Of a stretch of 9,397 nt of DNA, positions 1 to 5,591 are shown in pieces. The position numbers and the translations under genes were made by a program. Source of the DNA: Arenicella sp. GTDB taxonomy: Bacteria > Pseudomonadota > Gammaproteobacteria > Arenicellales > Arenicellaceae. The DNA lies in the NCBI GenBank assembly GCA_023299895.1, contig JALZWI010000281.1, positions 1 to 9,397 on the forward strand, written 5' to 3'. The notes below the pieces were generated by a model. That model had not been told where the DNA came from. It did not search any database and saw nothing but the letters and a program-made list of their open reading frames with translations. Position 1 is the first letter of the stretch; the number at the start of each line of letters is the position of its first letter.

Positions 1-320
1 TAGAAATGATGGTTGAAACAGGCTGTGACGGCTTAGGTTTGGACTGGACGGTTGATATTGCAGATGCCAGATCTAGAGTTGGTGATAAAGTAGTATTGCA
101 AGGTAATATGGACCCAGTTGTAATGAATACAAACCCTAAGGTGGTTGAGCAACAAGCAATTGATGTTTTACAATCCTATGGACAACATGACACTTCTAGT
201 AAAGGGCATATTTTTAATTTAGGCCATGGTATTCAACCTCATGCTAATCCAGATAATATGGCAGCCTTAGTACAAACAATTCAATCACAAAGCGCACGAT
301 TCCATCAGAGCAATGATTAA
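1..320 (+). CDS. hemE: Uroporphyrinogen decarboxylase HemE, C-terminal part (5' truncated by window edge)
   Basis: HemE decarboxylates the four acetate side chains of uroporphyrinogen III to give coproporphyrinogen III in cytoplasmic haem synthesis. The frame is open from base 3, with no start in the window, and ends at TAA 318-320, so only about the last 105 residues are present. Family motifs seen are ETGCDGLGLDW, then DIADAR, then QGNMDP, and the C-terminal signature HIFNLGHGI, all in the order and spacing of bacterial HemE. The ATG at base 6 is internal, not a start. The last 8 bp overlap the start of the phosphatase gene, so the two are probably translated from one mRNA. No terminator follows. 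Confidence 0.96.
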   Translation, partial: EMMVETGCDGLGLDWTVDIADARSRVGDKVVLQGNMDPVVMNTNPKVVEQQAIDVLQSYGQHDTSSKGHIFNLGHGIQPHANPDNMAALVQTIQSQSARFHQSND

Positions 321-780
321 CTTTGACCTAGTAGAGCCTGGCGTATTTATTGGTAGTGCTCCACAGTCGAGTGTGGATGTTGCGCGACTCAAGCAAATGA
401 AAATCACGGCGATCATTTGCTTGCAAAGTGACGATGATTTAAAGGCACGTAAAATAGATTGGTCAAAACTCCAGGAGTCATATAAACATAATGATATTTC
501 AGTTAATCGTTTTCCGATCAACGATTTTGATGAAGTAGATCTAGGGTGCAAAGTAGTTGAACCGATTAAACGACTTAATGAGTTGTTGTCTGCTAAGCAC
601 AAGGTTTATGTACATTGCAATGCTGGCGTTTGCCGGGCTCCGGCGACCGTTTTAGGCTATTTATGTCATTACCAGGGTATGTCACTCGAAGCAGGCTTAG
701 GGCAAATACGGATTGCTCGTCCAATTGCTAACCCCTATAAAAGCGCGGTTGAAAAAGCGCTTATCGAGTTGGCAGGATAA
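313..780 (+). CDS. Small dual-specificity (Cys-based) phosphatase resembling plant glucan phosphatases
   Basis: A complete 155-residue single-domain protein without signal peptide or membrane segment. The CX5R phosphatase loop is HCNAGVCRAP at residues 101-110, giving nucleophile Cys102 and phosphate-binding Arg108. The likely general acid is Asp71 or Asp73 in NDFDEVDL, about 30 residues earlier as usual. Beyond the loop, the order ICLQSDDDL, PINDFDEVDL, VYVHCNAG, RAPA and GYLCHYQG resembles, from memory, the catalytic domain of Arabidopsis SEX4/LSF2, which dephosphorylate starch. The glucan-phosphatase form CxAGxGR is present except that the second Gly is Cys107. No carbohydrate-binding domain is fused. 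The ATG overlaps the end of hemE by 8 bp, which suggests translational coupling. The phosphatase fold is secure; the substrate (glucan, phosphoprotein or other) is not known. Confidence 0.85.
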   Translation: MINFDLVEPGVFIGSAPQSSVDVARLKQMKITAIICLQSDDDLKARKIDWSKLQESYKHNDISVNRFPINDFDEVDLGCKVVEPIKRLNELLSAKHKVYVHCNAGVCRAPATVLGYLCHYQGMSLEAGLGQIRIARPIANPYKSAVEKALIELAG

Positions 781-790
781 TCACGCCTGA

Positions 791-834
791 TTTAGAAAGC
801 GGATTCTAATTAGACAGCAAATTCTAAATTAGAT
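791..834 (+). promoter_or_regulatory. Putative tandem operator upstream of phasin 1
   Basis: Two 18-bp inverted repeats abut exactly: TTAGAA-N6-TTCTAA at 792-809 and TTAGAC-N6-TTCTAA at 810-827. A further half-site TTAGAT lies at 829-834. The junctions create the palindrome TCTAATTAGA at 805-814 and the near-palindrome TCTAAATTAGA at 823-833. The block is 37/43 identical to one before the second phasin gene (2377-2419) and lies almost the same distance from the start codon. Paired 6-bp half-sites in an 18-bp unit suit a dimeric TetR-type repressor; the PhaD-like regulator encoded between the two phasins is the obvious candidate, by inference. No clear -10 box was found after this copy. Confidence 0.6.
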
Positions 835-871
835 AAGTAGAATTCCAAACATCGAAACTAATTGATTATTT

Positions 872-875
872 GGAG
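872..875 (+). promoter_or_regulatory. Ribosome binding site deciding the phasin 1 start
   Basis: GGAG lies 7 nt before ATG 883. It selects this ATG over the in-frame TTG at 862, which has no Shine-Dalgarno sequence and would add an unrelated 7-residue leader. Confidence 0.7.
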
Positions 876-882
876 TTACATA

Positions 883-1356
883 ATGGCTACTAAAAAAACA
901 ACCGCAAAGAAAACTTCTGCTAAAGCGACTAAATCAAGCGCGGTATCAGAAGTAACAAAACAACAACGTGCAGCATTAAAGTTGATCAATGACAATCTTG
1001 ATAATGCTCAAGATTTGGCTAAAAAGACATATTTAGCAAGTTTAGGTGTTGTTGGGCGTTCTTATGAAGAAGTTAAAACTCGTTACGTTAAAGCGACTGA
1101 GAGTGCGCAAGCGCGTTATGAAAAAATGACCACTGACAGTCAAGAATTCGTAAAAGATTTGGTTGATCGTGGTGAAAAAGTTCAAGACGAAGCAGGTGAT
1201 TTGATCAAAGAAAGCCGTGCGTCTGTTGAAGAGCAAATCGAGGCAGCAAAAAAACGCCTAGGTGGTTTTGTCTCAATCGTTGATGTACCGGCTCGGTTAC
1301 AGGACGTTTCAGACAAATTGGAATCTTTAAGTAAGGATCTTAAAAAGTCTGCATAA
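883..1356 (+). CDS. PHA granule-associated protein (phasin, PhaF/PhaI family), short form
   Basis: Phasins coat the surface of intracellular polyhydroxyalkanoate granules and control their size and number. This 157-residue protein has a short Lys/Thr/Ala-rich N-terminus (residues 1-20, beginning MATKKTTAKK) and then a long, charged, Cys-free helical region typical of the family. Family features are TYLASLGVVGRSYEE (49-63), the FVKDLVDRGEKVQ segment near residues 85-97, and the C-terminal IVDVPARLQDVSDKL heptad-like part. The last block closely matches VVDIPGRLRQAAKK in the second phasin of the window. The gene has its own putative operator upstream and a strong terminator 19 bp downstream, so it is probably a single-gene transcription unit. 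No transmembrane or signal segment is seen. Symbol left blank because phaF and phaI usage depends on the synthase locus, which is absent. Confidence 0.88.
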   Translation: MATKKTTAKKTSAKATKSSAVSEVTKQQRAALKLINDNLDNAQDLAKKTYLASLGVVGRSYEEVKTRYVKATESAQARYEKMTTDSQEFVKDLVDRGEKVQDEAGDLIKESRASVEEQIEAAKKRLGGFVSIVDVPARLQDVSDKLESLSKDLKKSA

Positions 1357-1374
1357 CTTCTTAAGCAATATCTA

Positions 1375-1412
1375 GCATAAAAAAAGCCTGTTTTTGCAGG
1401 CTTTTTTTATGC
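1375..1412 (+). terminator. Rho-independent terminator after phasin 1
   Basis: A perfect 16-bp hairpin: GCAT, seven A and GCCTG (1375-1390), then loop TTTTTG (1391-1396), then CAGGC, seven T and ATGC (1397-1412). The GC core followed by the T7 tract is a classic intrinsic terminator for the phasin transcript. The A7 tract gives the mirrored form on the other strand, but no - strand gene would use it. It separates phasin 1 from the tetR-type gene. Confidence 0.93.
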
Positions 1413-1443
1413 ATTAGTGTTTGCTAAGCTAAACCCGATAAAC

Positions 1444-1460
1444 TAAGTCTGATAGACTTA
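1444..1460 (+). promoter_or_regulatory. Palindrome immediately before the TetR-type gene (possible autoregulatory operator)
   Basis: TAAGTCT (1444-1450), GAT, AGACTTA (1454-1460) form a perfect 7-bp inverted repeat with a 3-bp centre, ending 4 bp before ATG 1465. It occupies the place where a Shine-Dalgarno sequence should be, and none is visible. It could be a DNA operator for autorepression or an RNA hairpin limiting translation. Its half-sites differ from the TTAGAA/TTCTAA boxes of the phasin promoters. Confidence 0.4.
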
Positions 1461-1464
1461 TCGA

Positions 1465-2049
1465 ATGGCAAAATTAAGTACCCGTGATTTGATCTTAGAT
1501 GTAGCATTAGTGCTGCTTAATGAGCGTGGAGAAAGCGTTGTCACCAGTGTTGATTTAGCCGTTGAAATGAACATTAGCCCAGGTAATTTATATTATCATT
1601 TTAAGGGAAAAGAAGAAGTTGTTGAAGAGCTCTATGCGCAGTTTCATGCACGACTGATACTTGCAATGCAAGAAATCACTTCTCAGGCTAAAGGAGATAG
1701 TAAAGAAACCTTAGCTGCTTTATGTGTCGTCTCAGATATATTGCAACAGTTTAAATTCATCAGTCAGGATATTACTGGTTTACATAACCGTTACCCCACG
1801 TTACGACGATCTCTTGCTAAGATATTAAGTCTGTTACATCAGTCACTGGTTGCACTCGTTAAGTTGGTTATGGATAGATCGAAGGTGACAAATTCAGATA
1901 ACGTGTCTCGTTTGTTAGCCGACAATTTAATGTTTACACTGATTAATTACGGCGCATACTTAGTCTTAATTGATCCACACCAGCAGTTGCAAGAAACATC
2001 GATCGAAGAACATTTATATTTGCATTTTTTGCCATTTATAGAAGATTAA
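1465..2049 (+). CDS. TetR-family transcriptional regulator, PhaD-like
   Basis: A 194-residue protein with an N-terminal TetR helix-turn-helix domain (about residues 5-55). The recognition segment NISPGNLYYHFKGKEEVVEEL (36-56) is close to that of Pseudomonas PhaD (recalled ISPGNLYYHFHGKE). The rest is a helical ligand-binding domain with the PhaD-like stretch FKFISQDITGLHNRYPTLRRSL. PhaD controls phasin and synthase genes in Pseudomonas, apparently sensing a PHA-metabolism ligand. Position supports the same job here: phasin genes lie on both sides, and a PHA-system gene follows after 18 bp, probably in the same transcript. Translation starts at ATG 1465, directly after a palindrome and without a visible ribosome site, so expression may be low or regulated. 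Family assignment is firm; the PhaD role and targets are inferred. Gene symbol withheld because orthology was not tested. Confidence 0.85.
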   Translation: MAKLSTRDLILDVALVLLNERGESVVTSVDLAVEMNISPGNLYYHFKGKEEVVEELYAQFHARLILAMQEITSQAKGDSKETLAALCVVSDILQQFKFISQDITGLHNRYPTLRRSLAKILSLLHQSLVALVKLVMDRSKVTNSDNVSRLLADNLMFTLINYGAYLVLIDPHQQLQETSIEEHLYLHFLPFIED

Positions 2050-2056
2050 TAATTTT

Positions 2057-2063
2057 GAGGAGA
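2057..2063 (+). promoter_or_regulatory. Ribosome binding site supporting a GTG start
   Basis: GAGGAGA ends 4 nt before GTG 2068 and is the best Shine-Dalgarno match in the window. It supports the non-ATG start of the PHA-system protein; no in-frame ATG occurs until residue 7. Confidence 0.75.
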
Positions 2064-2067
2064 TTGT

Positions 2068-2358
2068 GTGGCTAAAAACATAAAAATTTGTCGGCAACAT
2101 GAAATGGAATATGACGAATGTCGTGAGGTTGCTCAACAGTTGCTAGACAAGCTGGTCGACCATTTTGGTGGAAGCATTAGCTGTATTGGTGATGATTACC
2201 AATACCGTCATCCAACAGGGATAAAAGCAGTTATTGAAGCACGTGCAAAAGAGTTTAACGTCAATGTTAAATTGGGCTTGTTAACAGGCGCATTGGCTCC
2301 AAGGTTAGATGAAGAAATTAATCGAGTACTAGATGAGCACCTCGGTAGTTCTGTTTGA
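2068..2358 (+). CDS. Polyhydroxyalkanoic acid system family protein (PHA_gran_rgn)
   Basis: A 96-residue soluble protein starting at GTG 2068 behind a strong ribosome site. It matches the small PHA_gran_rgn family (PF09650, from memory), found next to PHA synthesis and granule genes. Typical features are an N-terminal basic segment, a long helix of the type DECREVAQQLLDKLVDHFGG (16-35), a middle strand containing YRHPTGIKAVIEARAKEF, and the ending LLTGALAPRLDEEINRVLDEHL. The molecular function of the family is not established; a part in granule regulation is assumed from gene context. The gene follows the TetR-type gene by 18 bp, so the two probably form an operon. The phasin 2 operator lies just after its stop codon, and no terminator is visible between them. 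Confidence 0.82.
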   Translation: MAKNIKICRQHEMEYDECREVAQQLLDKLVDHFGGSISCIGDDYQYRHPTGIKAVIEARAKEFNVNVKLGLLTGALAPRLDEEINRVLDEHLGSSV

Positions 2359-2376
2359 TGCGAATGGGCGCTAAGG

Positions 2377-2420
2377 TTTAGAAAGTTAATTCTAATTAGA
2401 CGGCGAATTCTAAATTGGAC
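2377..2420 (+). promoter_or_regulatory. Putative tandem operator upstream of phasin 2
   Basis: Second copy of the block at 791-834. Here TTAGAA-N6-TTCTAA is at 2378-2395 and abuts TTAGAC-N6-TTCTAA at 2396-2413. The third box has changed to TTGGAC (2415-2420). That box could double as a -35 element, with GATAAA (2438-2443) as -10 after 17 bp, although the match to sigma-70 consensus is only moderate. Most differences between the copies lie in the N6 spacers, as expected if the half-sites are the selected part. The block ends 52 bp before ATG 2472, against 49 bp in copy 1. Confidence 0.6.
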
Positions 2421-2471
2421 TGATACTCTAAGCATTCGATAAATACGAGATATATTCTAGAGGAAGAAGAG

Positions 2472-3119
2472 ATGGCTGATACTAAAAAAACAACCGAGAA
2501 AGTAACTAATACGACGGCAAAGAAAACAGTAAAAAAAGTATCTACGAAAGCGGTGGCTAAACCTGTTGCAAAAAAAGTAGGTAAAAAGTTAGCTAAAAAA
2601 GCAACCAAGAAACCTATTGCAAAGAAAACGACTAAAAAAGCAACGAAGAAAGCAGTTAAAAAAAATGCGAAAAAAGTAAGCAAGAAAACCAGTAAAAACG
2701 CTTCCTCAAAAAAGGATAATCGGTTTGAGCAATTACAGAGTTTACTGCAAGATAATTTGAGTGGTATTAATGCTGATGGGGCTGAAGCCTTGGCAAAGAA
2801 TATCTGGTTAGCGGGATTGGGCGCTTACTCAAAGACATTTGACGAAATTGCAGAACGAGTTGATGATATGCAAGATAGGTATTCAACAATAAATTCAGAG
2901 GGTCAAAAAATCTTTCAAGATTTAGTTAAACATGGCGACTCGATGCAAAGTGATATTGAAAAGACAGTTAAGAAAGGACGCGATACATTAGAAGACAGAG
3001 TTGAAGACTTCAAAGAGCGCTTTGGTGGTAGTTTGTCTTCAGTGGTTGATATCCCAGGTCGATTAAGACAAGCCGCTAAGAAAGTCGATAAACTGAGCAA
3101 TAAATTAAAGAAAAAGTAG
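2472..3119 (+). CDS. Phasin with long histone-H1-like lysine-rich N-terminal tail (PhaF-like)
   Basis: A 215-residue PHA granule coat protein in two parts. Residues 1-82 form a disordered basic tail with 32 lysines among the first 81 residues. From residue 34 to 72, KK pairs recur almost every four residues (KKxx), with Ala, Thr, Val and Pro between. Residues 85-215 form a phasin domain with IWLAGLGAYSKTF (111-123), FQDLVKHGD (148-156), then VVDIPGRLRQAAKK and a Lys-rich end. Such tails resemble histone H1 and Pseudomonas PhaF, which ties PHA granules to the nucleoid and helps their partition. In PhaF the basic repeat is C-terminal; here it is N-terminal. Nucleoid binding is therefore inferred. 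The start is ATG 2472 with AGGA at 2461-2464. A putative operator shared with phasin 1 lies upstream and a terminator downstream. Confidence 0.88.
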   Translation: MADTKKTTEKVTNTTAKKTVKKVSTKAVAKPVAKKVGKKLAKKATKKPIAKKTTKKATKKAVKKNAKKVSKKTSKNASSKKDNRFEQLQSLLQDNLSGINADGAEALAKNIWLAGLGAYSKTFDEIAERVDDMQDRYSTINSEGQKIFQDLVKHGDSMQSDIEKTVKKGRDTLEDRVEDFKERFGGSLSSVVDIPGRLRQAAKKVDKLSNKLKKK

Positions 3120-3192: not shown

Positions 3193-3216
3193 AGCGCTGA
3201 TTCTCCGGCGTTTTTT
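3193..3216 (+). terminator. Probable Rho-independent terminator after phasin 2
   Basis: CGCTG (3195-3199), loop ATTCTC, CGGCG (3206-3210) form a short GC-rich stem with one G-T wobble, extendable by AG/TT at its base, followed by six T (3211-3216). The T tract overlaps the stop codon of the convergent patatin gene. In the - direction the stem lacks a following T tract, so it serves the + strand only. Confidence 0.7.
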
Positions 3217-4693
3217 ATGCTCGTTTGACTAACTTCACTTGATTCTTTTTTTCAGCTCTTTTGCTTTTGTTGATTAAATCGCGATCTAGTTTTTTTACGA
3301 ATTTATCTAAAGCTCTACTTATATGAGTTTGGATACGTATCTTTTCTAGAGACGGCCAAGTTGACTTTTCTCCATCAGCAATTAGCTCTAGGATTTCTTT
3401 GCTCGATTGTGCGGACAGAGCTTTAGTCGGATTTAAAAATCGGTTTGACGGCAGAATATTGATATCCCCTGTATAGGATTGGGAAACAATCGAAATATAG
3501 CCGTTAATTAATTTACTGAAATAAGAGTCCGAATTAAAGGGTTTTTGCACGATATACGAAGCCGCCAGCCCCCAGTCTTTGATAGTTTTCATACTGGTTG
3601 CACTTATGGTCGAAATAATTCCAGGATGTTTTTTTTGAGGGTTGATAAACGGCAAGGCCAGAGGATTAGTTTGGCTGACAATGAAATGATTAACACCATA
3701 CAATCGCGATAAACGTTTCATTGGTAAGTCATCACTGAGTGAACCGTCAACCCATTTACGTTGGCTAAGATAAGGCACTCGATCTCCATTGACATCTTTA
3801 GCCATCAAGGTGACTGGCTCGAACACGCCTGGTATACAGCATGATGCCAATACTGCCTCACGTAACATCACATTAGGTGTAGTGATAGCGTTTAGTAGGC
3901 GAGACTTCTGATGTTTTTCTGCAGGGGCAATTGAAATATTGATACGCAAACCAGAAATTTTATAGGCTTCTGAAAACGTAAGATCTGGAATCAGTTTTGC
4001 GATCGTATTTTTGAAATCGTTTTGATCAATTTTACTTTTACCAAGAAGAGATAGCTTATTTATAATACTCCGCAATTCTTGCTCAAAATCCATGAACTCA
4101 GGTTCAAATATTTTACCAAGCGCTGAATTGCTACGTGAACCAGCAATCCCAGCAATCAAAGCTCCTCCACTGGAGCCTGATATGATCTCAGGAATTAATT
4201 CCTGTTGCCAGAGCGCTTTTAGCACACCGATATGAAAAAATAAAAAAGTTCCAGAACCGCTCATTAGAAATGCTGAACGACCAAAACAGAGTTGTGCGCG
4301 ATGAAAAAAATCAATTTTTTCATCTAAGCTAACACCTTTTAATCTTGGTTTTGCTAAATGCTCAAGACAGCGCGACACTTCTTTTGAGTATTCCTCAATT
4401 AACCGTTTGGTGCCAAATTTTGCTTGTGTGTACAAATCTGATCGCCCCATGCCACCGAGATTGCCATGGATTCCTTCGTTCAAAGCATATAATAGGTCAG
4501 TGTTATTATTTGCACGACGCAATGATTTCATTAAATTGACGCGACTTCGAATACTTATATGATCATAGCGGCGAGTGTTGTCATTTTTTTTCCACTTTGC
4601 CAAACCACTCTGTTCGTCATGGGCAATAGCGGCCGTACGCCATTCTTTATAAGAACTCGCATTAGCCATTTTTCGCTCTAGAGCTTTAGTCAT
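3215..4693 (-). CDS. DUF3336 / patatin-like serine lipase (TGL/SDP1-type acylhydrolase)
   Basis: A 492-residue protein counted from ATG 4693. An in-frame GTG at 4705 would add four residues; neither start has a good ribosome site, and MTKALERKMANASSYKEW fits the family start better. The N-terminal part (about 15-130) resembles DUF3336, the domain before the patatin fold in yeast Tgl3/4/5 and plant SDP1 triacylglycerol lipases. The patatin domain follows from about 135: oxyanion region SGSGT (145-149), nucleophile elbow GSSGG (173-177, Ser175), and catalytic Asp316 in VDGSLSDDLP. No signal peptide or membrane helix is seen, so it should act in the cytoplasm on neutral lipid, phospholipid or possibly granule-bound substrate. 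The C-terminus is rich in Lys/Arg. It follows the ParA gene by 28 bp, so the two are probably co-transcribed, and it faces the phasin genes. The substrate is unknown. Confidence 0.87.
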   Translation of the reverse strand: MTKALERKMANASSYKEWRTAAIAHDEQSGLAKWKKNDNTRRYDHISIRSRVNLMKSLRRANNNTDLLYALNEGIHGNLGGMGRSDLYTQAKFGTKRLIEEYSKEVSRCLEHLAKPRLKGVSLDEKIDFFHRAQLCFGRSAFLMSGSGTFLFFHIGVLKALWQQELIPEIISGSSGGALIAGIAGSRSNSALGKIFEPEFMDFEQELRSIINKLSLLGKSKIDQNDFKNTIAKLIPDLTFSEAYKISGLRINISIAPAEKHQKSRLLNAITTPNVMLREAVLASCCIPGVFEPVTLMAKDVNGDRVPYLSQRKWVDGSLSDDLPMKRLSRLYGVNHFIVSQTNPLALPFINPQKKHPGIISTISATSMKTIKDWGLAASYIVQKPFNSDSYFSKLINGYISIVSQSYTGDINILPSNRFLNPTKALSAQSSKEILELIADGEKSTWPSLEKIRIQTHISRALDKFVKKLDRDLINKSKRAEKKNQVKLVKRA

Positions 4694-4721
4694 ACGTATG
4701 ATCACAGTGATATTCTATTAG

Positions 4722-5522
4722 TTACTTCTTTTTAGTGAAGGCTATTTTAGCACGGGAATTTTTTTTGAGTGCCGCATAGAGATCAACAAATTCTTGTGTC
4801 ACTTTATGTTTTCTATCCAAATAAATTAATGGAGTATTGCTCGCGTGAGATTCTTTAACCTTAACTGATGAGGAAATAAAGGGCTTTAATAGTTTAAACT
4901 TATCTTTTGCGAGTTGTTTGACGGCTTCTTGGGGTAACTTTGCCCGAGCTTGAAATTGGTTGACGATGACACCTTCGATAACAAGATCAGGATTATGATC
5001 TTCGATGATTTCTTCTAGCTCTTCAGTCAGGTCAATCATCGCCTCACGCGCAAACACATCGCAGTCATAGGGGAGTAAGCATCGATCGGCAGCGATTAAG
5101 GCTGATAATGTAAAGAAGTTCAGCGCAGGCGGAGTATCAATATAAATTTCGTCAAATCGATCATCTATACTGATAAGAAAATCGCGGAATTTATAGATTT
5201 TGTGTTTCGCCTCTAATTTTCCCTCAAGGTCAATCAAAGAGTAACTCGCTGAAATCAGTGAAAGGTTTTCAAATGCAGTTTTACGAATGTAATCATCCGC
5301 CGTAAAATCTCGATAATTGCGACTGATAGTCGATTCCATGAACTCAGCAATACCGACCACATTATCCTTGCCGCTGTGACCTAGATAGGCTGTAGTGTTT
5401 GCTTGAGGGTCCAAATCGACTACTAAGACTTTGTTGCCAGATTGTGCTGAAATGGCCGCTAGATTACAGGTAATAGTTGATTTACCAACACCGCCTTTGC
5501 GATTGAATATGACTCTTTTCAT
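4722..5522 (-). CDS. Orphan ParA/Soj-family deviant-Walker ATPase
   Basis: A 266-residue P-loop ATPase. The deviant Walker A motif RKGGVGKST (8-16) has both the signature Lys9 and Lys14. Walker A' is VVDLDPQAN (34-42) and Walker B is IYIDTPP (126-132, Asp129). It starts almost directly at the P-loop strand, so it has no N-terminal HTH like plasmid P1-type ParA. Dimers of this family bind DNA nonspecifically when loaded with ATP and move plasmids, chromosomes, chemoreceptor clusters, carboxysomes or other cargo over the nucleoid. No ParB, parS-like repeat or MinE-like partner gene is adjacent; the next gene, 28 bp on, is a patatin-like lipase. The C-terminus is basic (KKNSRAKIAFTKKK). Cargo is unknown; the neighbouring granule genes make a storage granule an attractive but untested candidate. 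Upstream is the biotin operon in the same direction. Confidence 0.9.
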   Translation of the reverse strand: MKRVIFNRKGGVGKSTITCNLAAISAQSGNKVLVVDLDPQANTTAYLGHSGKDNVVGIAEFMESTISRNYRDFTADDYIRKTAFENLSLISASYSLIDLEGKLEAKHKIYKFRDFLISIDDRFDEIYIDTPPALNFFTLSALIAADRCLLPYDCDVFAREAMIDLTEELEEIIEDHNPDLVIEGVIVNQFQARAKLPQEAVKQLAKDKFKLLKPFISSSVKVKESHASNTPLIYLDRKHKVTQEFVDLYAALKKNSRAKIAFTKKK

Positions 5523-5563
5523 GATTACGGCTATGATAAATAAGAATAAATGTTCTTGCTAGT

Positions 5564-5591
5564 ATTGTATCTCTAATATTGTATTTGAAAA
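5564..5591 (-). promoter_or_regulatory. Possible sigma-70 promoter for the parA-patatin pair
   Basis: On the - strand, TTTTCA (complement of 5586-5591) and TACAAT (complement of 5564-5569) are separated by 16 bp, with 4/6 and 5/6 matches to consensus. They lie in the 84-bp AT-rich gap between bioD and parA, about 42 bp before the start codon. AT-rich DNA yields such matches by chance, so this is tentative. Confidence 0.3.

What the first reader, a model, noticed from the sequence alone, without database searches (positions are those of the whole stretch)
791..2420. Duplicated operator made of two abutting 18-bp inverted repeats before both phasin genes
The 43-bp blocks at 791-833 and 2377-2419 match at 37 positions. 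Each holds TTAGAN-N6-TTCTAA twice with no gap, so half-sites repeat at an 18-bp period on nearly the same face of the helix, about 50 bp before each ATG. Differences fall mostly in the N6 spacers. Elsewhere I saw only single half-sites, at a rate fitting chance. A PhaD-like TetR regulator lies between the two targets. Together this suggests a small PHA regulon in which two regulator dimers bind cooperatively. That the TetR protein is the binder is inference; no other regulator gene is present here.
Basis: partly seen in the sequence, partly recalled or inferred. Interest (0 to 1): 0.72.

Follow-up and report, generated by a model that had tools for sequence, protein, structure and literature searches.

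The report
Tandem PhaD-type operator controlling phasin genes
Two storage-granule coat genes share a doubled regulator-binding site built into their promoters; relatives of this bacterium show no plastic-making (PHA) enzyme but do have oil-making ones, so the switch probably serves oil droplets rather than bioplastic granules.

Summary
In detail: 37 of 43 positions match, and four exact TTAGA-N8-TCTAA palindromes occur where 0.026 are expected. The helix-face remark is wrong: 18 bp is 1.71 turns. I read the element as a tandem version of the PhaD operator. A similar single box, 10 bp before a -10-like hexamer, precedes phaI and phaC1 in Pseudomonas-type PHA clusters. Of 41 distinct tandem sites, 39 precede phasin genes and two are cut by sequence ends. 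In overlapping samples of 60, 369 and 194 genomes, clear tandem sites occur in exactly the genomes with a close regulator orthologue. The -10 starts 10 bp past the box in 39 of 39 aligned sites and no -35 is visible, which favours activation. Eleven of 12 parA promoters carry a single box; the window's own is weak. Relatives show no PHA synthase but have wax-ester/triacylglycerol synthase, so the regulon probably serves neutral-lipid droplets. Binding, activation and cargo are inferred; the window's own genome is not held.

The parts
792..827 (+). Tandem operator 1: distal palindrome 792-809 and proximal palindrome 810-827, before phasin gene 1
   Evidence: exact matches; conserved in relatives
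829..833 (+). Extra half-site TTAGA between the box and the -10, only in copy 1
   Evidence: not conserved in copy 2
838..843 (+). Predicted -10 hexamer TAGAAT, starting exactly 10 bp after the box; start site about 850
   Evidence: TA...T at this distance in 39 of 39 aligned sites, these two window sites included
883..1356 (+). Phasin 1 (short Lys-rich N-terminus)
   Evidence: Below Pfam/NCBIfam cut-offs; homologous to phasin 2, E 8e-24
1375..1412 (+). Intrinsic terminator-like hairpin between phasin 1 and the TetR gene
   Evidence: 1 found; shuffles give 1.5, so weak on its own
1465..2049 (+). TetR-family regulator, PhaD-like (TetR_N + PF13972); the proposed binder
   Evidence: co-occurrence
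2068..2358 (+). PHA_gran_rgn family protein (PF09650/TIGR02610)
2378..2413 (+). Tandem operator 2 (2378-2395 and 2396-2413), before phasin gene 2
2424..2429 (+). Predicted -10 hexamer TACTCT, starting 10 bp after box 2; start site about 2436
2472..3119 (+). Phasin 2 (PF05597) with a long Lys-rich N-terminus
   Evidence: Lys-rich stretch read from the translation
3215..4705 (-). DUF3336 + patatin lipase
4722..5522 (-). ParA-family ATPase; orthologues carry a single box in their promoter
5559..5576 (-). Weak candidate box before parA (TTAGAGATACAATACTAG), followed after exactly 10 bp by TATTCT
   Evidence: 3 of 12 mismatches, about 14% by chance; relatives have better boxes

Best explanation
Each 36-bp element is a tandem PhaD-type operator built into an activator-dependent promoter. 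Two dimers of the PhaD-like TetR protein encoded at 1465-2049 would sit side by side from about -58 to -23, over the place where a -35 element would be, and help RNA polymerase start from a -10 that begins exactly 10 bp downstream. The proximal palindrome keeps the register of the single Pseudomonas-type site; the distal one is an addition. The regulon is the phasin genes, even when dispersed, plus a parA gene that lies just upstream of the lipase gene. In these bacteria, whose relatives show no PHA synthase but do have WS/DGAT, it most likely adjusts the coat, and possibly positioning and lipolysis, of neutral-lipid droplets. Shown: conservation, rigid spacing, target genes, co-occurrence with the regulator, synthase content of relatives. 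Inferred: that this protein binds, that it activates, that its signal is a fatty-acid metabolite, and that the cargo is lipid.
For: Chance excluded. Perfect TTAGAA-N6-TTCTAA occurs only 1-3 times per genome in 10 of 11 relatives' genomes and not in the eleventh, G011. 39 of 41 distinct tandem sites (at most 3 of 24 mismatches) precede a phasin ORF and the other two are cut by sequence ends; they include phasins outside the regulator cluster. Clear tandem boxes and close TetR orthologues occur in exactly the same genomes: 9 of 60, 5 of 369, 2 of 194. TA...T lies at one fixed distance after the box in 39 of 39 sites; the -35 region matches TTGACA less than shuffles do (2.05 against 2.45 of 6), and a sigma-70 scan shows no plus-strand -35/-10 pair before either phasin. 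A similar single box at the same spacing lies before phaI in 4 Pseudomonas-type clusters, before phaC1 in 4 with a less perfect -10, and before phasin-like ORFs in 48 of 60 loci with more distant regulators. Two reviews report that PhaD acts on the phaI and phaC1 promoters of P. putida as an activator (passages). In 11 parA promoters a -10 candidate starts 38-39 bp (5) or 48-49 bp (6) after the single box: one helical turn apart, and in step with the distal phasin palindrome at 28 bp. PHA synthase: 0 of 12; at most 22.8 bits in 14 genomes against best matches of 105-159 bits in four others. WS/DGAT: 14 of 14. WS/DGAT adjoins the phasin-TetR cluster in G012, with a DUF3336-patatin, and in G309, with GPAT and acyltransferase genes.
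Against: No binding or expression data exist for this protein or these sites. Co-occurrence is confounded by shared descent, and most positive genomes were first found through the regulator. A repressor over -35 to -23 would also use these positions. The window's own genome is not held, so its synthases are unknown. The window's parA box is weak (3 of 12 mismatches). WS/DGAT genes mostly lack a box. Three of the four phaI boxes differ from TTAG in two of the first four letters. In the tree PhaD does not join the window's clade, and long branches meet there. The TetR gene has no box of its own. PF13972 is described as a repressor domain.
Confidence: 0.7

Rival explanations
1. Same operator and regulator, but the TetR protein represses: it blocks polymerase at -35 to -10 and is released by a ligand, as most TetR proteins do.
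For: TetR-family proteins are mostly repressors (recalled); PF13972 is described as a repressor domain; the box covers the -35 region.
Against: No -35-like hexamer remains to serve a free polymerase; spacing to the -10 is rigid in 39 of 39; in parA promoters the box lies 38-49 bp upstream of a -10 candidate, a place suited to activation; PhaD is reported as an activator.
Confidence: 0.2
2. The box is bound by a different, unlinked regulator, and the TetR gene is only a neighbour.
For: The TetR gene has no box of its own; no binding data exist.
Against: Clear tandem boxes and close orthologues co-occur without exception in the 60-, 369- and 194-genome samples; box variants with TTAGTATG half-sites go with the more distant regulators; single boxes lie at the two promoters that PhaD is reported to control.
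Confidence: 0.08
3. The regulon does serve PHA granules: the window's organism has a PHA synthase that its relatives lost, or one too divergent for the models.
For: Phasins, the PHA_gran_rgn protein and the PhaD likeness; G011 and G012 carry tandem boxes and also have synthase-like matches of 159 and 113 bits.
Against: 0 of 12 with PF07167 and no match above 22.8 bits in 14 genomes with TIGR01836, which gave 105-159 bits in G011, G012 and two Pseudomonas-type genomes; all 14 carry WS/DGAT.
Confidence: 0.25

Closest known systems
PhaD operators of the Pseudomonas phaC1 and phaI promoters
   Same: TetR_N + PF13972 regulator beside phasin genes; imperfect palindrome with a TTCTAA 3' half-site, 10 bp before a -10-like hexamer
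   Different: Single box there, abutting pair here; targets here are phasins and parA, no phaC; regulator only about 30-38% identical
Phasin promoters beside a PhaD-like TetR gene in Halieaceae, Porticoccaceae and kin
   Same: Box with TTCTAA plus 10 bp plus TA...T (one mismatch allowed) before phasin-like ORFs in 48 of 60 loci
   Different: Single box; left half-site mostly TTAGTATG or CTAGTATG; regulator 30-41% identical
PhaR (phaP regulator of Cupriavidus)
   Same: Controls phasins and senses the granule state (review passages)
   Different: A different protein, described as a granule-binding repressor; none of the 8 window ORFs scanned matched such a family
McdA/ParA organelle positioning (carboxysomes)
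   Same: An orphan ParA-type ATPase is encoded with organelle coat genes
   Different: No McdB-like adaptor identified; positioning untested

Membership tests
PhaD regulator | TetR_N plus PF13972 domain architecture | tested here: met
   window protein and the PhaD-position proteins of L187, L193
PhaD regulator | Encoded next to phasin genes | tested here: met
PhaD regulator | Part of a phaC-phaZ-phaC cluster | tested here: not met
   no phaC in the window; 0 of 12 relatives' genomes. I therefore call it PhaD-like, not PhaD
PhaD regulator | Falls in one clade with Pseudomonas PhaD to the exclusion of other paralogues | tested here: inconclusive
   window clade joins L016-L019 (100/100), PhaD lies on the other side of the midpoint root; long branches meet and the bootstrap had not settled
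PhaD-type operator/promoter | TTAG...CTAA-like palindrome 10 bp before a -10 hexamer, upstream of a phasin gene | tested here: met
PhaD-type operator/promoter | Bound by the regulator, which activates | not testable with these tools
   reported for P. putida in reviews (passages); primary papers not seen (Tarazona 2020 not held; de Eugenio 2010 not looked up)
Classical TetR repressor operator over a complete promoter | Recognisable -35 hexamer at 16-18 bp overlapped by the operator | tested here: not met
   best-of-three mean 2.05 of 6 against 2.45 in shuffles
PHA system | PHA synthase in the genome | tested here: not met
   in relatives only; the window's own genome is not held
Bacterial neutral-lipid (WE/TAG) system | WS/DGAT in the genome | tested here: met
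   in relatives only: 14 of 14 genomes; window genome not testable
ParA-type organelle positioning | ParA ATPase plus cognate cargo adaptor | tested here: inconclusive
   ParA-type domain found, KGGVGKST readable in the translation; no adaptor identified, none searched for

The most novel reading that the evidence does not exclude
A PhaD/phasin control circuit known from bioplastic granules runs wax-ester/triacylglycerol droplets in bacteria without PHA synthase: one activator on tandem sites sets the droplet coat (phasins), a ParA ATPase that spaces droplets along the nucleoid, with the Lys-rich phasin as tether, and a DUF3336-patatin lipase that mobilises them.
Probability: 0.4. Interest if true: 0.82.

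Novelty: new variant of a known kind. Interest (0 to 1): 0.62.

Why it matters
It gives a sequence signature, box plus 10 bp plus -10, from which PhaD-type regulons can be read across Gammaproteobacteria. It predicts where the regulator sits on DNA and that it activates. It also suggests that phasins and their regulator are not a PHA marker: in the Arenicella relatives they occur without a detectable PHA synthase and with wax-ester/TAG synthase. A 2025 review (passages) leaves open whether PHB granules are spaced by a system like that of carboxysomes; a parA promoter carrying the phasin box is a direct lead for storage organelles in general.

Tried and rejected
Own-genome scan: impossible, no genome is held. 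Relatives were used instead.

Boxes before WS/DGAT genes: 20 loci fetched, covering 20 of the 42 places. None has a tandem box directly before WS/DGAT. L242 has a near match (1 of 12 mismatches) before an alpha/beta-hydrolase gene followed by WS/DGAT, with TATACT starting 38 bp on, as in parA promoters; L237 has a 2-mismatch one. So WS/DGAT is not shown to be in the regulon, one pair excepted as a candidate.

Lipase (patatin) as a direct target: 1 of 13 distinct upstream regions has a box (L014), the rest 4-6 of 12 mismatches. L014's genome, G010, is one of two of 12 where parA was not found, so the box may pass to the lipase when parA is gone. That parA and the lipase form one operon elsewhere is inference from gene order.

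Rows dropped: three of 42 sites (L123, L015:7278 and the overlapping reading window:2396) were left out as chance or duplicate. In one search, four of 45 sites had 4 mismatches: one precedes a phasin, three do not. One 3-mismatch hit (G009:C29:46010, L123) does not precede a phasin. In one search, six of the 11 matching genomes had only 2-3-mismatch hits and were counted as chance; the backward control hits about 15 of 369 genomes there by my count, 1 of 60, 5 of 12 and 2 of 11. The phaC1 promoter of G617 (L199) was fetched but not examined, and the phaI promoter of G573 lies beyond its contig end.

Exact published PhaD footprint: not found. Listings (the last lists 20 of 306 papers) showed no text with the sequence, and one primary paper is not held. 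My memory that the PhaD operator has two 8-bp half-sites 6 bp apart is recall, not a result.

In print: searches (2 papers; 10 papers) listed nothing whose title or abstract start describes this regulon; one of them (PMC10351704, passages) mentions a phasin gene and PHA-system genes on WS/DGAT scaffolds. Only openly licensed papers were searched. The word 'DUF3336' did not occur in the 20 of 96 papers listed, so the likeness of DUF3336-patatin to plant SDP1 and yeast TGL lipases is recall.
Full report
1. The observation. The window holds exactly four TTAGA-N8-TCTAA palindromes, at 792, 810, 2378 and 2396, in two abutting pairs. A Markov-1 model of the window gives 0.026 such palindromes and none of 2000 simulations gave an abutting pair. 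The remark about the helix face is wrong: 18 bp is 1.71 turns, so the second palindrome is turned by about 257 degrees. Block 1 has one more half-site (829-833) that block 2 lacks.

2. Surroundings. Gene order: end of hemE, a dual-specificity phosphatase, phasin 1, TetR regulator (TetR_N + PF13972), a PHA_gran_rgn protein, phasin 2 with a Lys-rich N-terminus, then on the minus strand a DUF3336-patatin lipase and a ParA ATPase, and biotin genes (the bio names are my reading of the translations). Phasin 1 is below the curated cut-offs but is clearly homologous to phasin 2 (E 8e-24). The nearest regulator proteins, where named, come from Arenicella and other uncultured bacteria of that kind. No whole genome is held for the window, so all genome-scale tests are on relatives.

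3. Conservation. A scan of 84,980 species' genomes with the regulator alignment confirmed 414 relatives and kept the best 80 loci. In L001-L019, 18 of 19 have an exact ten-letter palindrome with an abutting partner of at most one mismatch near a phasin; in L016 the partner has two. L020 is truncated and has none. The consensus is TTAGAA-N6-TTCTAA then TTAGGG-N6-TTCTAA; the window has TTAGAC in the third half-site. In whole genomes the perfect TTAGAA-N6-TTCTAA occurs 1-3 times each in 10 of 11 and not in G011 (the backward control hits once in 2 of 11). Among the loci then held, 41 distinct tandem sites have at most 3 of 24 mismatches, the two window sites included; 39 are followed within 200 bp by an ORF that matches a phasin, and the other two run off a contig end. 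Several of these phasin genes lie on other contigs or far from the regulator. In Pseudomaricurvus one phasin has four successive palindromes, spaced 18, 19 and 19 bp.

4. Link to the regulator. In 60 genomes of the order, the tandem box is in 9 and a close regulator orthologue (E below 1e-100) in the same 9; no other genome has one below 1e-15. Most of the nine I already knew from the regulator scan, so the weight lies in the 51 that have neither. In 369 genomes of the class, five have a tandem with at most one mismatch and the same five have E below 1e-50; four of these were also in the first sample. Five more have weaker regulators (E 1e-24 to 1e-20) and no tandem, and six genomes show only 2-3-mismatch hits. 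In 194 genomes of the order of G011, only G011 and G012 have both, while 84 others have more distant regulators without the tandem; G011 and G012 too were known from the regulator scan. Shared descent limits the weight of these tables.

5. Promoter. With 39 sites aligned on the box, TA at 11-12 and T at 16 bases after it are present in 39 of 39, a -10 hexamer that starts exactly 10 bp after the box (three of 42 sites were dropped as chance or duplicate). No -35 is visible at spacers 16-18: the best of three matches TTGACA at 2.05 of 6 letters on average, against 2.45 when the letters there are shuffled. A simple sigma-70 scan finds no plus-strand -35/-10 pair before either phasin gene. Placing the -10 hexamer at -12 to -7, the box spans -58 to -23 with its centre at about -40.5. 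This is where class II activators sit (recalled). In the window the predicted -10 hexamers are TAGAAT (838-843) and TACTCT (2424-2429).

6. The same device elsewhere. phaC1 has CTAGGGCGCGTTTTCTAA (2 loci), CTAGAGCGCGTTTTCTAA (1) or TTAGAGGGCATTTTCTAA (1), followed after 10 bp by CATACT or TTGAAT, a less perfect -10. Reviews say that PhaD acts on these two promoters in P. putida as an activator (passages). Among 60 loci with more distant regulators, mostly Halieaceae and kin, 48 have the single box plus 10 bp plus TA...T (one mismatch allowed) before an ORF that fits a loose phasin motif of mine; 53 hits in all, against 1 in one simulated set; 9 loci have no hit and 3 have a hit without such an ORF. 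I therefore read the window's element as a PhaD-type operator with a second, distal palindrome added. In the tree the window's clade (98/99) joins the other tandem-box regulators (100/100), with PhaD on the other side of the midpoint root; long branches make the deeper order unsure.

7. parA belongs to the regulon. ParA orthologues are in 10 of 12 relatives' genomes. Of 12 distinct parA upstream regions, 11 have a box with at most 2 of 12 mismatches, 9 of them at most 1; simulation gives 0.2% at 1 or fewer and 1.7% at 2 or fewer. The twelfth is the window, with 3 (about 14% by chance). In the 11, a -10-like hexamer starts 38-39 bp (5) or 48-49 bp (6) after the box. These promoters are related by descent and four of them hold other -10-like hexamers too. 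The two distances differ by one turn and are in step with the distal phasin palindrome, which ends 28 bp before its -10. In the window the weak box (5559-5576, minus strand) is followed after exactly 10 bp by TATTCT.

8. PHA or lipid? PhaC_N (PF07167) was found in 0 of 12 relatives' genomes. TIGR01836, a class III synthase model whose cut-off no genome reached, gave best matches of 105-159 bits in two Pseudomonas-type genomes, G011 and G012, but at most 22.8 bits in the 14 Arenicella-type and Thiotrichales genomes. Completeness of these genomes is not told. All 14 have WS/DGAT, as do G011 and G012; the two Pseudomonas-type genomes show none. In G012 the order is alpha/beta hydrolase, WS/DGAT, DUF3336-patatin, boxed phasin, boxed phasin, TetR; in G309 the boxed phasin and TetR adjoin a HAD-acyltransferase, a GPAT and a WS/DGAT. 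A metagenome study reports WS/DGAT and Kennedy-pathway genes shared with Arenicella xantha (PMC10351704, passages). A Ralstonia phasin binds triacylglycerol inclusions when expressed in TAG-storing bacteria (PMC6273058, passages). Neutral-lipid droplets are thus the likelier cargo. Against it: the window's genome is unknown, two tandem-box genomes have synthase-like matches too, and WS/DGAT genes mostly lack the box.

9. Mechanism and confidence. Most likely the PhaD-like protein activates phasin genes from tandem sites (0.7 for the whole account as stated). Repression (0.2), another binder (0.08) and PHA as cargo (0.25, not exclusive of the others) are the rivals. The regulator has no box of its own and follows a weak terminator-like hairpin, so it may be made at a low level by read-through; this is inference. 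A ParA that spaces lipid droplets is the boldest reading and is untested; no adaptor was identified.

10. Novelty. PhaD and its two Pseudomonas targets are known. The abutting double site, the rigid box-to--10 rule across the group, the parA target and the absence of PHA synthase did not show in the listings and passages of the searches I ran, in a library that lacks most subscription journals. I class it as a new variant of a known kind.

Noticed in passing
window 4722-5522 (-) and 5559-5576: Orphan ParA ATPase beside storage-granule genes; orthologues carry the phasin box in their promoters.
   Followed up: yes
window 3215-4705 (-): DUF3336-patatin next to phasins; an architecture that I recall from plant and yeast triacylglycerol lipases.
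   Followed up: partly
L121 2063-2136: Pseudomaricurvus phasin promoter with four successive palindromes (spacing 18, 19, 19).
   Followed up: no
L146, L149: TetR paralogues directly beside genes that read like WS/DGAT (not checked with Pfam); possibly regulators of neutral-lipid synthesis.
   Followed up: no
about 22 nt after the tandem box in many loci; window 850-855: A conserved CATCGA-like stretch at the predicted start site (C at offset 57 in 31 of 39), unexplained.
   Followed up: partly
L242 1277-1294: Near-perfect box before an alpha/beta-hydrolase gene followed by WS/DGAT, with TATACT starting 38 bp on, like the parA promoters.
   Followed up: partly
window 313-780: Small dual-specificity phosphatase-like protein between hemE and phasin 1.
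   Followed up: no
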